Below, in pieces: positions 9,860 to 16,728 of a DNA stretch of 64,000 bases. The stretch lies in contig NZ_KB849727.1 of assembly GCF_000368865.1 (NCBI RefSeq), positions 489,194-553,193 on the forward strand, in the 5' to 3' direction. Position 1 is the first letter of the stretch, and each line of letters starts with the position of its first letter. A program made the translations under genes and the position numbers. The DNA is from Acinetobacter bouvetii DSM 14964 = CIP 107468. GTDB taxonomy: Bacteria; Pseudomonadota; Gammaproteobacteria; Pseudomonadales; Moraxellaceae. The notes under the pieces were generated by a model. The model saw nothing but the letters and a program-made list of their open reading frames with translations. It made no database searches and was not told the origin of the DNA.

Positions 9860-10576
9860 ATGGTTTCTAATCCCTTGAAAAATATGACTCCGTCTGCATT
9901 GAAAGCGAAAATAGGTACTATGCTCCAAGAACAAGCAATCCCTGAAACAAATGCTGTCCGCACAGTTGGCCGTAAAGCGACCATTACAAAAGAAGAACTG
10001 TTTCAAGCAGCATTGCATTTAATTGGTCCGCAAAAAAGCATCGCCTCATTGAGCCTGCGTGAAGTCGCACGGGAAGCCGGCATTGCGCCAAATAGCTTTT
10101 ACCGCCATTTCAAAGATATTGATGAGCTGGCTATTGAACTGATTGACCGTTCAGGCTTGGTGCTGCGTCAAATTCTGCATGAAGCGCGGCTGAAAGCATC
10201 TAAACAGAACAGTATTATCCGCAGTTCTGTTGAAGTCTTTATAGAGCAGCTCAATATTGATAAAGGCAATTTAAGCCTATTGCTGCGCGAAGGCTATACA
10301 GGTTCAGCATCGTACAAGCAGGCGGTCGAACGCCAGCTGAACTTTTTCCAGCAAGAGCTGAAAGAAGACCTGATTGTTCTGGAAAGGCTCAACCAAAGCA
10401 AATTGGCGCATCCGGACATTGTCGCCAAGGGCATTACGCAGCTGGTATTTAATATGGGCGCAAAAGTGATTGATTTGCCGGCAGATGAACGCAAAGAAGT
10501 GGCCGAACAAACCATGATTATGATTCGGATGATTCTGGAAGGCGCTCGCCATCTGGATGAAGCGAAGATTCGTTAG
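9860..10576 (+). CDS. TetR-family repressor, FabR/DesT-like
   Basis: A 238-residue TetR-family regulator. An unstructured N-terminus of about 40 residues precedes the helix-turn-helix (EELFQAALHLIG, then SLREVAREAGIAPNSFYRHFKDIDEL at about residues 75-100). The sequence after the HTH (ELIDRSGLVLRQIL) is typical of FabR, the regulator of unsaturated fatty acid synthesis. It is divergent from a desaturase and reductase pair, as DesT is in Pseudomonas, so I infer that it senses the acyl-CoA saturation ratio and represses that operon and perhaps itself. The start is ATG 9860; later in-frame ATGs before the HTH could shorten the tail. Confidence 0.88.
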   Translation: MVSNPLKNMTPSALKAKIGTMLQEQAIPETNAVRTVGRKATITKEELFQAALHLIGPQKSIASLSLREVAREAGIAPNSFYRHFKDIDELAIELIDRSGLVLRQILHEARLKASKQNSIIRSSVEVFIEQLNIDKGNLSLLLREGYTGSASYKQAVERQLNFFQQELKEDLIVLERLNQSKLAHPDIVAKGITQLVFNMGAKVIDLPADERKEVAEQTMIMIRMILEGARHLDEAKIR

Positions 10577-10594: not shown

Positions 10595-11275
10595 TTAATG
10601 GATTAATCCAATCTGCTTGGCTGCGTGAATAGCTTTAGTTCTAGAATTCACAGCTAATTTCTGATAAATATTTTTTACATGCACATCTACCGTAAATTTT
10701 GAAATATTGAGTTCGGCACCAATTTCACGGTTGCTTAAGCCTGTTGCTACGCAAGCCAATATCTCCCTTTCTCTCGCTGATAAATTAAAATCATTTTTTT
10801 CATTTTGCTCTAATGATGGAATAGTAGTTGAGGTTAAATTTTTTAAAATTTTCTTTGCAATCACCGGATCAATAATTGCACCGCCATTTAGCATGGTCCG
10901 TATAGAGAACATGAGTTCAAAATCATCTTTTTCTTTCAAAACATAGCCTGTTGCACCCGCATGCAAAGCTTTATAAATAACATCGAATGTATTCCATGAA
11001 GAAAACACCATAATTGGAACAGTGCTTGCAATTTTATCCCGAATGCTTTGAATAAAATCAATACCGCTGCCATCAGGCAGATTTAAATCTACCAGCATAA
11101 ATTCAACTGGATTTGAACGGCAGATATTTTTAGCAAAATCAATTGTTTGAGAAAATAAAATATCCTGCTTTTCATAACCAAAACTTTCCAAAATGTTATA
11201 AATTCTAGACTGATGTGCTGGATCATCTTCCAGAATCAGTATTGGCTTAAGTAAAGGGAAGTTCAGATTCAGCAT
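10595..11275 (-). CDS. NarL/FixJ-family response regulator (orphan)
   Basis: A 226-residue two-component response regulator. The N-terminal receiver has the acidic pocket E16-D17-D18, the phospho-acceptor D63 in LVDLNLPDG, and the conserved Lys in GYVLKEKDD near residue 112. The C-terminal LuxR-type HTH (LSAREREILACVATGLSNREI, then TVDVHVKNIYQKL) is complete. No histidine kinase lies nearby. A 13/18 match to the 18-bp inverted repeat found in front of the neighbouring pilus and cystatin-like genes lies 54 bases upstream of its start. I infer that it may regulate that cluster and itself; this is untested. Confidence 0.93.
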   Translation of the reverse strand: MLNLNFPLLKPILILEDDPAHQSRIYNILESFGYEKQDILFSQTIDFAKNICRSNPVEFMLVDLNLPDGSGIDFIQSIRDKIASTVPIMVFSSWNTFDVIYKALHAGATGYVLKEKDDFELMFSIRTMLNGGAIIDPVIAKKILKNLTSTTIPSLEQNEKNDFNLSAREREILACVATGLSNREIGAELNISKFTVDVHVKNIYQKLAVNSRTKAIHAAKQIGLIH

Positions 11276-11328: not shown

Positions 11329-11346
11329 ATCCCTAGAATTGGGGAT
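11329..11346. promoter_or_regulatory. degenerate copy of the 18-bp inverted-repeat site, upstream of the response regulator
   Basis: ATCCCTAGAATTGGGGAT matches 13 of 18 positions of the perfect site at 12031-12048. It keeps the ATnCCT...GGnAT inverted-repeat frame and lies 54 bases before the response-regulator start, where an autoregulatory site would be expected. Confidence 0.4.
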
Positions 11347-11376
11347 TTATTGATTAGGCATTCACTCTTTTTTTAG

Positions 11377-11535
11377 ATAATTTTTAGCAGCTTAGCAAGC
11401 CAAAAGGCGGAAATTCAACTGAACAGCTTAGGCGGATTCTCGCGTGTCGCCGCATTGAATCATGACTGGGCTAGAAAGGCCTTTTTCCAAATAGAAACTT
11501 TATTAAAAAAATATCAGGCTGCTGTACAGTTCTGA
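11377..11535 (+). pseudogene. unidentified gene-end remnant
   Basis: An open stretch of 52 codons runs from a stop at 11374 to TGA at 11533-11535, reading ...LGGFSRVAALNHDWARKAFFQIETLLKKYQAAVQF with a protein-like amphipathic helix at the end. It has no start codon or ribosome-binding site. I do not recognise the family. It looks like the 3' end of a lost gene inside the 328-base gap between the response regulator and the cystatin-like gene. Confidence 0.3.
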
Positions 11536-11558
11536 TTTTTTATGCAGCTCAGCGGATC

Positions 11559-11594
11559 AGAAATACTAAAAGCTGCGCAGCCTTTAGTATTTCT
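11559..11594 (-). terminator. hairpin terminator of the cystatin-like gene
   Basis: The arms AGAAATACTAAA and TTTAGTATTTCT enclose a GCTG/CAGC inner stem. It starts 10 bases past the stop codon of the minus-strand cystatin-like gene. There is no long T run, so terminator strength is uncertain. Confidence 0.65.
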
Positions 11595-11603
11595 TCAAGC
11601 AGC

Positions 11604-11885
11604 TTACTTGATTGGCAGCGTATCGTAGAAGCCTTCCAATACTGCAGCGCCTTCCAGCGGTTTAAAAACTAAAGCCCACTTAGTTGTATTAACAGCATTC
11701 GGGTAAATTGGCTTAACTTCCACCTCAAAGCAGTAATGCGTTCCAGCAACAACCTGCTCATAATAAGCCGTTAAGGTATATTCACAGCCCAGAAGCTTTG
11801 AAAAAATTTCATCAAATGTTTTCCATACTGGACTGCCCAACAGTGGAGTTTTTTTCGCACTCCAAGCGCCAACTGCATGATTCAT
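11604..11885 (-). CDS. small cystatin-like protein (QVVAG motif)
   Basis: A 93-residue protein with no signal peptide, starting at ATG 11885 behind AAGGAAA. Residues 44-48 read QVVAG and continue THYCFEVEV, the same pattern as the first hairpin loop of stefin/cystatin cysteine-protease inhibitors (QxVxG followed by a beta strand). An N-terminal AVGAW and an upstream helix-like stretch (VWKTFDEIFSKLL) before the motif also fit the cystatin order of N-terminal glycine, helix, QxVxG hairpin. Function in this bacterium is unknown. The gene is divergent from the pilus cluster and shares with it the inverted-repeat sites at 11984 and 12031, so co-regulation is likely. Confidence 0.65.
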   Translation of the reverse strand: MNHAVGAWSAKKTPLLGSPVWKTFDEIFSKLLGCEYTLTAYYEQVVAGTHYCFEVEVKPIYPNAVNTTKWALVFKPLEGAAVLEGFYDTLPIK

Positions 11886-11983
11886 AATATTTTCCTTGTT
11901 ATCATAATGCTTTATAAGCGTTAAATACTGCCTGATGGAATACTTAACGCTTATTTTTATAGTCATTTTAATTTTTCATGGGC

Positions 11984-12001
11984 ATACCTAAAAATAAGTA
12001 T
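11984..12001. promoter_or_regulatory. 18-bp inverted-repeat site, copy upstream of the cystatin-like gene
   Basis: ATACCTAAAAATAAGTAT matches the perfect site at 12031-12048 at 15 of 18 positions. Its first base is 99 bases upstream of the cystatin-like start, and the two sites are 47 bases apart centre to centre. Confidence 0.55.
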
Positions 12002-12030
12002 TTTTCATGCGGGCCGAAAATTCATGATAT

Positions 12031-12048
12031 ATACCTAAATTTAGGTAT
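12031..12048. promoter_or_regulatory. perfect 18-bp palindrome, candidate NarL-type operator
   Basis: ATACCTAAATTTAGGTAT is its own reverse complement. The inner 16 bases can be read as two 7-mers around 2 bases (TACCTAA-AT-TTAGGTA), the 7-2-7 layout bound by NarL-type regulators. It lies 65 bases before the first pilin-like gene, in the divergent gap with the cystatin-like gene. Confidence 0.65.
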
Positions 12049-12112
12049 CGCTAAAACTGCATTGCAGCAGCATAGTTTCACTTACTATGAAATAAGTTAA
12101 AGCTGACTGCTC

Positions 12113-12598
12113 ATGCTCAAAATTAAAAATTTAGCTTTTTTAAGCGCAATACTCAGCTGCACGTTTACATTGAACAGCTACGCCGACAACTGCACCGTTA
12201 CGGCGCCAGTCACAAATGTTAATTTAAATTACGCTCAAGCTGGGCGCGTATCTGCAAATTTTAAAAATTGTAAAATTCGAGTGCGCCCTTCTTTTCAATG
12301 GTCTAATCCCGCAGGCAATAGTTCAGTCTTCCGTTTAGACGGCAAACCCGATGTTTATATTCCGGTCAGCTTCTATTCCAGAATCGGAGGAGATTGGGAT
12401 GGCAACTATCCTGTCGTAGGTGCATCAATGACCGCCGCAAATGCTTATGCAGATTTCAACGTCCACTTCAACAGCTCAAGCCAAACCAAAAACCTGAACA
12501 CTTATGCAGAACTTTCTTCCTCTCACTATAAAGATTTAGCACAATATCCAGTCGGCACTTACAGAGCCAGCCTCACTTTATCCGCAGTTGAATGGTAG
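12113..12598 (+). CDS. secreted pilin-like subunit
   Basis: A 161-residue exported protein with signal peptide cleavage predicted after NSYA (mature DNCTVTAPV...). It has paired cysteines (DNC and NCKI), an Ig-like beta-rich pattern and the closing PVGTYRASLTLSAVEW. That ending is what is expected of the C-terminal strand of chaperone-usher subunits, in particular the spore-coat-U-like subunits of archaic pili. It is the first gene of a pilus cluster (second subunit, chaperone, usher). It is a single domain, so it is not an obvious two-domain tip adhesin. The ribosome-binding site is weak. Which of the two subunits builds the shaft is unknown. Confidence 0.7.
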   Translation: MLKIKNLAFLSAILSCTFTLNSYADNCTVTAPVTNVNLNYAQAGRVSANFKNCKIRVRPSFQWSNPAGNSSVFRLDGKPDVYIPVSFYSRIGGDWDGNYPVVGASMTAANAYADFNVHFNSSSQTKNLNTYAELSSSHYKDLAQYPVGTYRASLTLSAVEW

Positions 12599-12684
12599 CG
12601 CTGCGTCATTCAATATTAAGGTTTTGGGTTATTAGGTTTTATTCATCAGGCTGATGATCAAACAATGCGCCGAATGAATTCAAA

Positions 12685-12702
12685 ATACCTAAATTTAGTT
12701 AT
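12685..12702. promoter_or_regulatory. 18-bp inverted-repeat site upstream of second pilin gene
   Basis: ATACCTAAATTTAGTTAT matches 17 of 18 bases of the perfect site at 12031-12048. It lies 111 bases before the second subunit gene, suggesting separate regulated transcription of that gene. Confidence 0.6.
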
Positions 12703-12812
12703 TCCCTAAAAATCATTCAAATCTAAACTCAATCATATATTTAACATTTTATAAATATATTTTTATTCAGCTATAACACAGCCCGTTTTTTAAGCCTTGG
12801 GAAATTAAAAAC

Positions 12813-13304
12813 ATGAAATTACTATTCAAACTAACCAGCGCCTTGCTGCTTGGAACAAGCGCTTTTGCAGCGCATGCAGCAACACAAAGTGTCACTGTGC
12901 AGTATACATTGACTGTTCCAACCGCATGTACGCTCTCCAAAGCCGGCACGACAGTTGCAAAGTCGCTGCCAGTTGATGGCACGCCTGTAAACGAAACTTT
13001 CAGCGTCATGTGCAATGCGGATTATACAATTTCGGCCCAAACCAAGAACTCTAGCGGTTCTGTAAATCAATCATGGCTGCGCTATGCCGGCCCTAAAGGA
13101 ACCTCACTTATTTCATATCCAATTACCTTATCCAGCCCTTTACGCAATGTGCCTGTGAATAATGCGGCAGGCACTAAAGTTACAGCGGGGCTGTCAGCCA
13201 CGCCTGAAATTTACACATTAACCGCAAGCGCTCCAGCTTTTTCGCTGTCCTCATTACTTGCAACAGACTACACCGACGAAGTTACGATTGAAATATCCTA
13301 TTAA
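12813..13304 (+). CDS. chaperone-usher pilin subunit (spore-coat-U-like)
   Basis: A 163-residue exported subunit; the signal peptide ends in AAHA and the mature part begins ATQSVTVQYTL. Cysteines at TACTLS and VMCNA would form the disulfide typical of this fold, and the end, DEVTIEISY, matches the beta-rich C-terminal strand donated to the next subunit. It has its own upstream regulatory site (12685) and a strong hairpin just downstream, so it is probably the abundant shaft subunit. The ribosome-binding site is GGGAA before ATG 12813. No two-domain adhesin is found in the cluster. Confidence 0.8.
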   Translation: MKLLFKLTSALLLGTSAFAAHAATQSVTVQYTLTVPTACTLSKAGTTVAKSLPVDGTPVNETFSVMCNADYTISAQTKNSSGSVNQSWLRYAGPKGTSLISYPITLSSPLRNVPVNNAAGTKVTAGLSATPEIYTLTASAPAFSLSSLLATDYTDEVTIEISY

Positions 13305-13313
13305 TTGGTTTTA

Positions 13314-13346
13314 TTAAGAAACATAAATTCATTTTATGTTTCTTAA
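13314..13346 (+). terminator. hairpin after the pilin gene
   Basis: A perfect 14-bp inverted repeat (TTAAGAAACATAAA and its complement, 5-base loop) starts 9 bases after the pilin stop codon. It lacks a clean T run. It may stabilise the pilin mRNA or partly terminate transcription so that less chaperone and usher are made. The rest of the gap to 13609 holds no gene; AGGGGA precedes the chaperone start. Confidence 0.6.
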
Positions 13347-13609
13347 CTTATGTATTTTTAAGCCATGCTGCCTCAAAATATTTTAGCTGGCAAGCCTGTA
13401 ATTGAACCGAACTGATTTTAAATAAATCATCTGAAGTCATGAGTAAATTAAATCTGCGCTGCGGAATGTTTAATTTATTTTGTTTATAAAATCATATACT
13501 TCCATCAAGCCGATTCATTCTCCCGAAGGGCTTTTTATGTGCCAGAAAAGACCTGCAGCTGTTTTTGAATTGCTTTGATTTTTAGATTTATTAGGGGAAA
13601 AAAGAATAA

Positions 13610-14338
13610 ATGCCTTCCATCTTGAACAAATTATCGTGCCTGCTTATTGCTTCAATCGGGGCAGTCAGCATCCCCGCACATGCTGATTTGTCTATTTTTC
13701 CAATCAAGCTTTTCATCACTGGCGATAATGGGCAGCGCACAACCACGATGAATGTGATTTCTTCAAATGAAGAACCGCCGCAAAGCTATGAAGTTCATGT
13801 ATTCCGCTGGACGCAGGATGACAAGGGCCATGAACTCTTAACTCCAGATACAGAGTTGATGATCAATCCGCTTACTTTTATGCTTGAACCGAACAGCAAG
13901 CGCATTATCCGCATGGGGTTCAAGCAGCCTATTGCGTCCATGCAGCTGCAGCAAGAAGCCGCCTGGCGGATCAAATTTATTCCCCTTCCTGATGCCGAGA
14001 AAGCTAAAGGCTTAAAATATGCTTACAGTTTTAATGTCCCATTATTTGCTGGTACGAACTTTAAGCCTGAGATGTCTTTTCAGCTGGCGAAAAACAATAA
14101 AAATCAGCCAGTGCTGCTGGCAAAAAATTCAGGTACCGCCCATTTTCAAATCACGGGTTTCAAACTACAGAATGCTGCTGGAAAAGAAATTTTTAATTCC
14201 CAAGAACTGAAGTATGTTTTGCCGCATAAACAAGTTGCATTTGATTTAAATACATTGGCTGTTAAGCCTGATTCAAACCTTAAGCTTATTGTTCAAACAG
14301 CAGACTCTAAAACACTGCAATTTGATGTGTCGGAGTAA
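13610..14338 (+). CDS. periplasmic pilus chaperone
   Basis: A 242-residue periplasmic chaperone with a signal peptide ending IPAHA. It has the two-domain Ig-like layout of PapD-family chaperones: an N-terminal SIFPIKLFI strand, NVISSNEEPPQSYEVHVFRW, and the ILEPNSKRIIRMGF-like stretch (here MLEPNSKRIIRMGF), then the FNVPLFAGTNF hinge. These proteins cap pilin subunits by donor-strand complementation and deliver them to the usher. AGGGGA precedes the ATG. Its stop codon overlaps the usher start (TAATG), so the two are translationally coupled. No copy of the 18-bp site is seen directly upstream. Confidence 0.9.
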   Translation: MPSILNKLSCLLIASIGAVSIPAHADLSIFPIKLFITGDNGQRTTTMNVISSNEEPPQSYEVHVFRWTQDDKGHELLTPDTELMINPLTFMLEPNSKRIIRMGFKQPIASMQLQQEAAWRIKFIPLPDAEKAKGLKYAYSFNVPLFAGTNFKPEMSFQLAKNNKNQPVLLAKNSGTAHFQITGFKLQNAAGKEIFNSQELKYVLPHKQVAFDLNTLAVKPDSNLKLIVQTADSKTLQFDVSE

Positions 14339-16728
14339 TGACAATGCTGATAAGACAATTATGCAAGATCCGCAAATCCCCGCCTGTGCTGATCCTGCTG
14401 CTGTGCTGCATTCAGTTAGAACATACGCAAGCGCAGGACGTTTCGCCTGCATCCGTAGCAAAGCCGCCTGTAAGCAGCCCAAATTCAGAAAATGCAATTT
14501 TGGGGCTTTGGATTAATGGTGTAGACCTGAAGCAGGATGCATTTATTTTAAGGGAAAACGGCCAGACCTATATCGAATGCAGCCTTTTAAAGGGCGGATT
14601 TGTCGATATATCCAAATTTATCCATTTAAATAAAGACAATCTGCAATATTGTTTAATTGACCGCCCGGATATCAGCAGTCAAATGGATGAACAGCATCAA
14701 TTATTCAAGCTCAGCATTCCTGCGCAATATATGCTGGCGCAAAAGCTGTCATCTCAGCAGCCATACCTGCCGGATCTGCCCAATTTAGGCGGTTTTGTAA
14801 ACTACAATCTCTATTTTCAAGATGGGGATTTTAATAAGCAGGCAAATGCCTCTACAGACTTAAATCTCTTCTGGAAAAATATACTCTTCAACAGCAGCCA
14901 TGTTTTCCGGAAAAACTATAATCATGAGCAGGCTAATGTCCAGAACAGCAGCCGTTTAAATACCTCATTGAGTTTTGAGTTTCCAAAACAGATGAGCAGT
15001 TTAAAACTGGGCGATAATATCAGCACCTATACCGGCTTAAACCAGTCCTTCTATTTTGGCGGATTCAGCTTTGGCACCAACTTTACCAGCCGCCCCAATT
15101 ATATCTATTGGAACACACCCTCGATTGAAGGCAGCGCGCTGACTCAATCCAGCGTCGATTTAATTATTAATGGCACACAAGCCTATAATGCCAAAGTCAA
15201 TCCAGGCCAGTTCAATATAGACAGCAATCTTGGCTTTAATGGCCTCGGCAATGCTGAAATTGTCGTAAAGGACATACTAGGCAATACAACGGTTAAAAGC
15301 ATACCGATCTTTGTCAATCAGCGCCTGCTGCGCCCCGGATTGACGGATTATAATATTTCCGCCGGCAAGCTCCGCTATAACTATGCCTATGATGACAATG
15401 ATTACCGCGACTGGTTCGGAAGCGCCTATATCCGCAGAGGCATCAGCTCATCCACGACATTGGGCGCTGTTGCCGACTACAGCAAAAAACTGGAAAGCGC
15501 CGGGCTGTTATGGAGTCAGTATCTGTATAAGCTTGGCTTGCTGGAAGTGAATTCTTCCTATAGCCATGCAGATGGCCTCGGTTTAGAAGGCTATACCGTC
15601 AATACTGAATTTAAGCGTGATACGCAATCGTACAGTATTGGCTTGCGCGCTCAGTATTACAGCCCAGAATTCCGCATGCTGGGTTTAGATGACTATACAG
15701 CCAGTTACCTGCCTAAACAGGAAAGCCAAATCTACTTATCCAGAAATCAAATTCCATTCATTAACAACTTATCGTTAAGCTATGTTGAAAGAAAATACCG
15801 CGAAGGCACTGACCGGCAGGATCAGCGGATTTTCAACTTAAGAACCAGCCAATCCCTCGCAAAAGGGCTTTTTGGCAGCTTCGGCGTGGCCTATGATGCA
15901 GAAAGCGGCGACCGCGCCAGTGTCGATTTGATGCTGAGCTATAACTTTGATGACCGCAAGCATTCCGTCACCTTCTCACAGCATGATGATGACGAGACCA
16001 GCCTGCAGTTCAACAAGTATTCTTATGAAAACACAGGTTTTGACTACACGGTCGGCGCAAGCCGCTCACATGATGTATATTCCGGCAATCTCAGTACACG
16101 CTTTAAAACCAACGCCGGCGACTTGAATTTACAGTATTTGCAAACAGATGATCAAAAATATTACACCGCAAGCTATATGGGGTCACTCGTTTGGCTGGGC
16201 AATCGCTTTGACCTGAGCAAATACATCAACAACAGCTTTTCGCTCGTCCGCTTAGAAAATACGCCAAACATTGATGTGTACAGCAATGGCTCATATATAG
16301 GAAAAACCGATAAAAATGGGGAGATTTTCAGCTACAACTTAGCAGGCTATACCAAAAACAGCATTGCCTTTGATGAAAGCCAAGTCGGCATTGATGCCAA
16401 TATTGCCGAAACATTCCATACCTTTATGCCAATGAATCAGCGCGGCTACATCGTTGATTTTCCAATTAGCAATCATCAAAGCAGAGATGTAACCTTCAGG
16501 TTTATTGATGTAAATCAGCAGGCTTTAGCCAGTGGCAGCGTGGTCCATATTTTAGGCATTCCAAATGCGAAATATCCGATTGCCAGCAGCAGTCTCGTTA
16601 CATTCTATGACTTGATGCCTAGAGATTACAGTTTGGAAGTTCAAACTGCGGATAAAGTCTGTAAAAGTGAATTTACCTTGGGTCCCGATACAAAGGTCGA
16701 TGAGCCAATTACCCTCACTTGCCAATAA
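14338..16728 (+). CDS. outer-membrane pilus usher
   Basis: A 796-residue outer-membrane usher that forms the secretion pore and assembly platform of a chaperone-usher pilus. An exported N-terminal domain (LWINGVDLKQDAFILRENGQTYIECSLL) is followed by a long beta-barrel and plug region (SSVDLIINGTQAYNAKVNPGQF is the typical plug-domain strand) and a C-terminal domain ending ITLTCQ with two Cys. Length and gene order resemble Csu-type archaic systems. The start, ATG 14338, overlaps the chaperone stop. No subunit or tip-adhesin gene follows: the next gene is convergent and the terminator is 16 bases downstream. Confidence 0.9.
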   Translation: MTMLIRQLCKIRKSPPVLILLLCCIQLEHTQAQDVSPASVAKPPVSSPNSENAILGLWINGVDLKQDAFILRENGQTYIECSLLKGGFVDISKFIHLNKDNLQYCLIDRPDISSQMDEQHQLFKLSIPAQYMLAQKLSSQQPYLPDLPNLGGFVNYNLYFQDGDFNKQANASTDLNLFWKNILFNSSHVFRKNYNHEQANVQNSSRLNTSLSFEFPKQMSSLKLGDNISTYTGLNQSFYFGGFSFGTNFTSRPNYIYWNTPSIEGSALTQSSVDLIINGTQAYNAKVNPGQFNIDSNLGFNGLGNAEIVVKDILGNTTVKSIPIFVNQRLLRPGLTDYNISAGKLRYNYAYDDNDYRDWFGSAYIRRGISSSTTLGAVADYSKKLESAGLLWSQYLYKLGLLEVNSSYSHADGLGLEGYTVNTEFKRDTQSYSIGLRAQYYSPEFRMLGLDDYTASYLPKQESQIYLSRNQIPFINNLSLSYVERKYREGTDRQDQRIFNLRTSQSLAKGLFGSFGVAYDAESGDRASVDLMLSYNFDDRKHSVTFSQHDDDETSLQFNKYSYENTGFDYTVGASRSHDVYSGNLSTRFKTNAGDLNLQYLQTDDQKYYTASYMGSLVWLGNRFDLSKYINNSFSLVRLENTPNIDVYSNGSYIGKTDKNGEIFSYNLAGYTKNSIAFDESQVGIDANIAETFHTFMPMNQRGYIVDFPISNHQSRDVTFRFIDVNQQALASGSVVHILGIPNAKYPIASSSLVTFYDLMPRDYSLEVQTADKVCKSEFTLGPDTKVDEPITLTCQ

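What the first reader, a model, noticed from the sequence alone, without database searches (positions are those of the whole stretch)
11329..12702. Four copies of an 18-bp inverted repeat link a response regulator, a cystatin-like gene and a pilus
Seen in sequence: ATACCTAAATTTAGGTAT at 12031 is perfect; copies at 12685 (17/18) and 11984 (15/18) and a degenerate one at 11329 (13/18) precede the second pilin gene, the cystatin-like gene and the response-regulator gene. Known: NarL-type regulators bind paired 7-mers in a 7-2-7 layout, which the palindrome can be read as. Inference: the orphan NarL-family regulator encoded here binds these sites and forms a local regulon controlling the pilus and the cystatin-like protein.
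Basis: partly seen in the sequence, partly recalled or inferred. Interest (0 to 1): 0.78.

Follow-up and report, generated by a model that had tools for sequence, protein, structure and literature searches.

The report
Conserved DNA switch for a pilus
In Acinetobacter, an 18-letter DNA palindrome is conserved in front of a surface-pilus operon and in front of a neighbouring response-regulator gene; the regulator likely binds these copies to control both itself and the pilus, probably on orders from a sensor kinase encoded 66 kb away.

Summary
Observation confirmed: four copies with 5, 3, 0 and 1 mismatches; the two near-perfect ones are the only such copies in the 3.39-Mb genome. The regulator-operator reading is well supported by comparison. 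Among all 16-mers in the 200 bp upstream of the first pilin, the palindrome core is by far the best conserved over eight loci. It lies there in 7 of 7 regulator-pilus loci, and a degenerate form lies upstream of 38 of 56 genes of this regulator family against 12 of 872 control ORFs. The 'orphan' regulator has a likely partner: its subclade co-occurs with a second 7TMR-type histidine kinase in 9 of 9 genomes, encoded 66 kb away here but beside the pilus in two relatives. The cystatin-like gene is the weak member (3 of 149 genomes). Against: the motif is not enriched genome- or genus-wide, only its places inform; one relative has sites, pilus and kinase but no close regulator. Binding, phosphotransfer and the sign of regulation are untested. 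The kind is known (LadS/PA0034-CupA, BfmSR-Csu, FimZ); this is a new member with a readable operator and a split kinase-regulator pair.

The parts
12031..12048 (.). Perfect operator palindrome, centre 73 bp upstream of the first pilin start codon
   Evidence: best conserved 16-mer upstream of the first pilin across 8 loci
11984..12001 (.). Second copy (3 mismatches), 47 bp upstream of the perfect one; probable tandem site of the first-pilin promoter, possibly shared with the divergent cystatin-like gene
   Evidence: second-best conserved block; tandem pair also in A. tianfuensis without the cystatin-like gene
12685..12702 (.). Third copy (1 mismatch), centre 119 bp upstream of the second pilin start codon
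   Evidence: a counterpart at <=3 mismatches in 4 of 7 regulator-pilus loci
11329..11346 (.). Degenerate copy (5 mismatches to the perfect one, full match to TMCCYRNNNNYRGGKA), centre 62 bp upstream of the response-regulator start codon; probable autoregulatory operator
10595..11275 (-). NarL/LuxR-type response regulator, 226 aa, intact receiver (E16 D17 D18, D63, K114) and GerE DNA-binding domain
11604..11885 (-). Cystatin-like small protein (93 aa from the start at 11885); doubtful member
   Evidence: Pfam Cystatin E 0.019, below cut-off
12113..12598 (+). First pilin-like gene (pil1), 161 aa, no Pfam hit
   Evidence: position and relatives
12813..13304 (+). Second pilin (pil2), 163 aa, Spore Coat Protein U domain
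   Evidence: PF05229, 24.5 bits, cut-off 22.4
13610..14338 (+). Periplasmic pilus chaperone, 242 aa
   Evidence: PapD_N, E 0.00039, 20.8 bits, just under cut-off 23
14338..16728 (+). Outer-membrane usher, 796 aa
   Evidence: PF00577, E 5.7e-32

Best explanation
The palindromes are most likely operators of the neighbouring NarL-type response regulator, which would bind them as a dimer to control its own gene and the adjacent chaperone-usher pilus. Shown by sequence: the copies, their conservation in front of the regulator and the first pilin, the intact receiver and DNA-binding domain, and the co-occurrence with a second kinase. Inferred: a 7TMR-type histidine kinase encoded about 66 kb away (contig C3:566391-568478, outside the window) phosphorylates the regulator; the phosphorylated regulator dimerises on inverted heptamers in a NarL-like 7-2-7 layout (TACCTAA-AT-TTAGGTA); bound about 60-75 bp upstream of the start codons it activates transcription of pil1, pil2-chaperone-usher and its own gene (positive feedback). 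The system is a duplicate of a kinase-regulator pair (own copy at C3:392008-394554) that uses the same kind of operator, so cross-control between the two is likely.
For: Unbiased footprint: of all 16-mers in the 200 bp upstream of pil1, TACCTAAATTTAGGTA has the lowest summed mismatch over 7 relatives (5; median 38; lowest of 200 letter shuffles 30), and the next separate block is the 11984 site (16). pil1 site in 7 of 7 regulator-pilus loci at <=3 mismatches to the 18-mer, centres 63-73 bp from the ATG, in at least three groups with dissimilar flanks. Exact 16-mer in 149 genus genomes: 6 places, 5 of them upstream of a pil1-type gene, 1 inside an ORF. Regulator upstream regions: 38 of 56 with a <=1-mismatch degenerate site vs 12 of 872 control ORFs; with the window palindrome alone (<=4 mismatches) 20 of 56 vs 9 of 872 (Fisher 4e-43 and 7e-20, kinship ignored); 0 of 10 unrelated LuxR-type regulator genes. 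Kinase: over 175 genus genomes the regulator subclade (>=60% identity) is in 9, and all 9 carry the second kinase at >=55%; 5 of the other 166 do (Fisher 6e-12, kinship ignored). Kinase directly after the usher in G135 and divergent from pil1 across an exact palindrome in G001. NarL engineered 7-2-7 site TACCCCTAAAGGGGTA for comparison (PMC4549865, passages seen).
Against: Genome-wide and genus-wide the motif is not enriched: <=3 mismatches in the own genome 9 vs 6 reversed control; <=1 mismatch in 149 genomes 16 places vs 46 for the reversed control (summed by hand), 8 of the 16 inside ORFs. G001 has two sites, pilus and kinase but no close regulator (best 27% identity). G039 lacks a <=1-mismatch site in front of its regulator, and 17 of 43 paired-paralogue genes lack one, including a near-identical group of 8. 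pil2 sites at <=4 mismatches are absent in 3 of 7 loci. Five genomes have the kinase (one with a stop codon) without the regulator subclade, and 5 of 14 regulator-clade genomes lack it. Each heptamer of the perfect site departs from the NarL consensus TACYYMT by one base. -10 boxes at a fixed distance were found in only a minority, so the activator geometry is not established.
Confidence: 0.72

Rival explanations
1. The operators are bound mainly by the kinase-paired paralogue (own genome C3:393889-394554, 46% identical) or interchangeably by both, and the window regulator is a secondary or competing binder.
For: The same degenerate site lies upstream of 26 of 43 paired-paralogue genes and four pili of another type carry a 1-mismatch site 51-69 bp upstream of the first pilin, two of them (G082, G086) in genomes that had no close relative of the window regulator.
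Against: Perfect copies upstream of pil1 track the window regulator's clade: 5 of the 6 genomes in which I found an exact copy there carry it (G000, G042, G059, G135, A. amyesii; the exception is G001, which has neither close regulator). G135 has the window-type regulator, pilus and site but no paired paralogue at E<=1e-12.
Confidence: 0.17
2. The regulator binds these sites but as a repressor of pilus and self, relieved by kinase signalling.
For: Sites lie 62-73 bp upstream of the start codons, where they could overlap a promoter; no -10 at a consistent activator distance was established.
Against: NarL-type and functionally parallel regulators of chaperone-usher pili seen in the papers act positively (PA0034 on cupA; BfmR on csu).
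Confidence: 0.2
3. The palindromes are operators of the neighbouring TetR-type regulator (9860-10576).
For: TetR proteins bind palindromes of this length (recalled), and the gene is adjacent in most loci.
Against: In G135 and G039 regulator, pilus and sites occur with no TetR homologue in the same 20 kb, while 5 loci with TetR-desaturase and the regulator but no pilus have no <=4-mismatch copy in the TetR region; no <=4-mismatch copy elsewhere in the window, hence none in the TetR-reductase interval.
Confidence: 0.03
4. Chance repeats or recombination sites (for example an invertible pilin segment between 12031 and 12685).
For: Two near-identical palindromes flank pil1.
Against: Expected 0.02 copies in the window; pil1 has the same orientation toward pil2 in the 7 loci (in G001 it is inverted relative to the rest), and copies precede regulator genes as well.
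Confidence: 0.02

Closest known systems
Pseudomonas aeruginosa LadS/PA0034 controlling the CupA pilus (PMC11237798, passages seen)
   Same: A kinase encoded apart from its regulator, a response regulator without local kinase, and a chaperone-usher pilus under positive control with regulator bound at the promoter by ChIP-qPCR. That LadS has a 7TMR sensor is recalled, not from a call.
   Different: LadS is a hybrid kinase, the Acinetobacter kinases here have no receiver hit; no operator sequence was seen in the passages read; PA0034 was not compared by sequence.
Escherichia coli NarL and its 7-2-7 sites (PMC4549865, passages seen)
   Same: Receiver plus GerE architecture; inverted heptamers with a 2-bp spacer; TACC...GGTA ends.
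   Different: Below NCBIfam's NarL cut-off (96.5 vs 250 bits); last heptamer position A instead of T; targets are pili, not nitrate respiration.
Burkholderia thailandensis BfmSR with csuFABCDE (PMC12124856, abstract and passages seen)
   Same: Two-component system and archaic chaperone-usher pilus in one cluster, with positive autoregulation proposed.
   Different: Unorthodox hybrid kinase with no obvious input domain, next to its regulator.
FimZ of enterobacteria (NCBIfam NF007403)
   Same: NarL-type regulator of fimbriae (family name only).
   Different: 84 bits against a cut-off of 271: not a FimZ.
A. baumannii Csu pilus (PMC10721868, passages seen)
   Same: Archaic chaperone-usher pilus with SCPU-type pilin in the same genus.
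   Different: The window operon has 4 pilus genes and no tip-adhesin gene after the usher; the Csu promoter sites listed in that paper are for other regulators.

Membership tests
NarL/LuxR-type response regulators | Receiver domain with phospho-acceptor Asp and acidic pocket, plus GerE helix-turn-helix | tested here: met
   PF00072 60.8 bits, PF00196 75.4 bits; E16 D17 D18, D63, K114
NarL equivalog (NF007935) | Score above curated cut-off | tested here: not met
   96.5 vs 250 bits
FimZ equivalog (NF007403) | Score above curated cut-off | tested here: not met
   84.1 vs 271 bits
NarL-type 7-2-7 binding site | Inverted TACYYMT heptamers 2 bp apart | tested here: inconclusive
   Layout fits; perfect site 1 mismatch per heptamer, 11985 has 1 and 0, 12686 1 and 2, 11330 2 and 2 (consensus recalled)
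NarL-type 7-2-7 binding site | Bound by the regulator | not testable with these tools
   needs gel-shift or footprint
7TMR-DISM histidine kinase (proposed partner) | 7TM sensor module and HATPase | tested here: inconclusive
   HATPase_c 46.2 bits above cut-off 26.4; 7TMR-DISM_7TM 27.9 bits, just under 29; HisKA_3 weak, E 0.028
Cognate kinase-regulator pair | Phosphotransfer | not testable with these tools
   only co-occurrence and synteny
Chaperone-usher pilus | Usher, chaperone and pilin in one operon | tested here: met
   Usher and SCPU above cut-off, PapD_N just below; order kept in 7 loci
Csu-type pilus | Two-domain tip adhesin gene after the usher | tested here: not met
   next gene is a reverse-strand hydrolase
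Cystatin | Pfam Cystatin domain or fold | tested here: inconclusive
   E 0.019, 15.6 bits vs cut-off 22.2; model pLDDT 52.5, not searched

The most novel reading that the evidence does not exclude
Acinetobacter runs a shared-operator adhesion network: duplicated 7TMR kinase-NarL regulator systems, split apart on the chromosome, together with a third regulator-like gene with a decayed receiver, all carry and compete for one 7-2-7 palindrome that sets which archaic pilus (and in some species trimeric adhesin) is made.
Probability: 0.3. Interest if true: 0.66.

Novelty: new member of a known kind. Interest (0 to 1): 0.5.

Why it matters
Regulators of archaic chaperone-usher pili, the main surface-attachment fibres of Acinetobacter, are poorly mapped outside Csu. 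Here a readable operator, a named regulator and a candidate kinase can be tested at once, and the duplicated pair offers a natural case of how paralogous two-component systems share or divide an operator. It also turns an apparent orphan regulator into one half of a predicted split pair.

Tried and rejected
TetR operator: rejected on synteny. Invertible element or chance: rejected. Cystatin-like gene as core regulon member: demoted. It is in 3 of 149 genomes, has 3 relatives in the protein collection and its fold model was too poor (pLDDT 52.5) to search. In its favour, G044 has one 1-mismatch site 71.5 bp upstream of its copy, where the regulator gene is cut by a transposase. Fixed -10 spacing: TANNNT at about +30 to +33 from the site centre in 4 of 8 pil1 (3 at 30, 1 at 32) and 9 of 39 regulator promoters; inconclusive. 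Extension to the second pilus beside ilvC: full-match site 494-495 bp upstream of the pilin in own genome and G042, none within 600 bp in the other 7 of 9 loci; mostly negative. Other own-genome matches of the degenerate pattern (10 vs 4 control): 5 are at regulator or pilus genes, the rest coding, convergent or unexplained. Looking in G001's relatives for the missing regulator: I searched the kinase there, not the regulator; it did not settle the question. Rows dropped: one search used 56 of 59 regulator rows (identity under 40%, or filters for length, upstream length and duplicates); one 50%-usher pilus (G073) had too short a contig to test. The regulator tree held two very long, likely unrelated rows and was a quick search.

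Papers: 8 searches. None of the listings shown described this regulator or operator in Acinetobacter; listings are capped and subscription papers are missing. Passages were seen in PMC10721868, PMC4549865, PMC11237798, PMC9146086, PMC5382811 and PMC12124856; the rest are listings only.

Full report
WHAT IS THERE. The window lies in a 3.39-Mb, 99.97% complete genome whose relatives in the searched genus are Acinetobacter (named loci). Between a TetR gene and a hydrolase gene are a NarL/LuxR-type response regulator (10595-11275, minus), a small cystatin-like gene (11604-11885, minus), and a pilus operon: pil1, pil2 (SCPU pilin), chaperone, usher (12113-16728, plus). The four palindrome copies are confirmed at the stated coordinates. 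Copies at <=1 mismatch occur nowhere else in the genome; at <=3 mismatches the genome total (9) hardly exceeds the reversed control (6).

CONSERVATION AT THE PILUS. Of 149 genus genomes, 13 including the own have a regulator of the window's clade; over all 175 held, 14 do. All 7 have a site at <=3 mismatches (0, 0, 0, 3, 0, 2, 0) upstream of pil1, centre 63-73 bp from the start codon; 4 of 7 have one at <=3 mismatches upstream of pil2. With no motif assumed, the palindrome core is the best conserved 16-mer in the 200 bp upstream of pil1 over eight loci (G001 included): summed mismatch 5, median 38, lowest of 200 shuffles 30. The eight are not independent: G000, G042 and A. amyesii have similar flanks, as do G059 with G135 and G039 with G088.

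GENUS-WIDE PLACES. The 16-base core at <=1 mismatch occurs at 16 places in 12 of 149 genomes, against 46 places for the reversed control (control summed by hand), so there is no overall enrichment. Seven of the 16 are upstream of pilin genes of this pilus type (G000 twice, G042 twice, G059, G135, G001), 8 lie inside ORFs and 1 (G123) lies upstream of an unrelated 145-aa ORF (the ORF caller's 5' extension of the G042 pil1 was discounted). Of the 6 exact matches, 5 are at pil1.

THE REGULATOR'S OWN OPERATOR. The copy at 11329 looks poor against the perfect palindrome but is a full match to the form TMCCYRNNNNYRGGKA. That form was written after seeing relatives, so it is partly circular; the palindrome of the window alone (<=4 mismatches) gives an independent test. 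In the 300 bp upstream: 38 of 56 regulator-family genes vs 12 of 872 control ORFs (degenerate form, <=1 mismatch); 20 of 56 vs 9 of 872 (window palindrome). By group the first count is 12 of 13 for the window's clade and 26 of 43 for the kinase-paired paralogues; A. amyesii adds one. In 39 of the rows examined a site centre lies 47-81 bp from the start codon (which kept only sites 40-90 bp away and counted 39 rows under slightly different filters). Ten unrelated LuxR-type regulator genes have no site at <=2 mismatches; an eleventh (G131, an LPVP-type relative of the third gene below) has a full-match site 220 bp upstream.

THE MISSING KINASE. The paired paralogue (46% identical) sits beside a ~630-aa membrane kinase with HATPase and 7TMR-DISM-like segments. 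The own genome has a second such kinase at C3:566391-568478, 66 kb from the window regulator. On the kinase tree it falls in an 11-row clade (SH-aLRT 100, quick tree) with the kinases of G042, G059, G088, G113, G074, G039, G135, G084, G041 and G001. In several genomes it keeps one neighbourhood, after a SulP-type transporter (names from recall). In G135 it is directly after the usher of the pilus, and in G001 it is divergent from pil1 with an exact core palindrome between. Over 175 genomes, all 9 genomes with the regulator subclade (>=60% identity) have this kinase at >=55% identity, against 5 of the other 166 (G084, G097 with a stop codon, G175, G041, G187; G001 at 46% is counted only by the tree). 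The test (6e-12) ignores kinship. The 5 remaining regulator-clade genomes (G087, G073, G005, G063, G123) have no pilus beside the regulator and no kinase of this clade; they still carry the regulator's own site. So the kinase partner is likely, not shown.

HOW IT LIKELY WORKS. The receiver has the acidic pocket, D63 and K114, and the DNA-binding domain is complete, so a phosphorylation-controlled dimer is expected. The perfect site reads as inverted heptamers TACCTAA-AT-TTAGGTA. The NarL 7-2-7 layout, and the engineered site TACCCCTAAAGGGGTA, are from PMC4549865. Each heptamer differs by one base from the recalled NarL consensus TACYYMT. I infer that the distant kinase phosphorylates the regulator, which then activates pil1, pil2 and its own gene. 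The sign of control is the least certain step: possible -10 boxes at a common distance occur in a minority. Activation is favoured because PA0034 with LadS activates cupA in P. aeruginosa and BfmSR activates csu in B. thailandensis with proposed positive feedback.

BEYOND THE LOCUS. Four pili of a related type (ushers 49-53% identical) have a 1-mismatch site 51-69 bp upstream of their first pilin; the four are one orthologous locus, so one event. The pilus beside ilvC has a site ~495 bp upstream in 2 of 9 loci only. In G044 a site lies between the paired regulator and a trimeric-adhesin-like ORF. The paired paralogue can therefore use the same operator type, and cross-control is a live rival.

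THE CYSTATIN-LIKE GENE. It occurs in 3 of 149 genomes (G000, G042, G044), has a sub-threshold Cystatin match and no usable fold model. The site beside it is better read as the second site of the pil1 promoter, because A. tianfuensis has a tandem pair without the gene. Its own regulation remains possible.

VERDICT. The kind is known; this is a new member, with no description found in the 8 paper searches (listings only).

Noticed in passing
own genome C2:248243-248896 (locus L226:773-1426, minus): A third gene resembling this regulator family with decayed receiver and DNA-binding matches (both under Pfam cut-offs); a full-match site lies 82 bp upstream and another about 450 bp upstream.
   Followed up: partly
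L042:6747-7749 (A. cumulans): Where relatives have the pilus, a 4-mismatch palindrome lies 70 bp upstream of a 307-aa gene with an NPP1 (necrosis-inducing protein) Pfam match.
   Followed up: partly
own genome C3:488913-488930, about 280 bp before the window: A 3-mismatch copy between two convergent genes, so probably not a promoter site.
   Followed up: partly
L091:6869-10426 (G044): Sites upstream of both the paired regulator and a divergent ESPR-type surface adhesin-like ORF.
   Followed up: no
L074:13400-16600 (G135): ORFs made of a repeated peptide (FLSCLHGSE and similar), which looks like a CRISPR array read as protein, near the pilus-regulator cluster and transposase-like ORFs.
   Followed up: no
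L204:9800-9817 (G123): A 1-mismatch palindrome upstream of an unrelated 145-aa ORF, a possible extra target.
   Followed up: no
L125:1-6820 (G001): Pilus, two sites and the kinase are present, but no close regulator in a 99% complete genome.
   Followed up: partly
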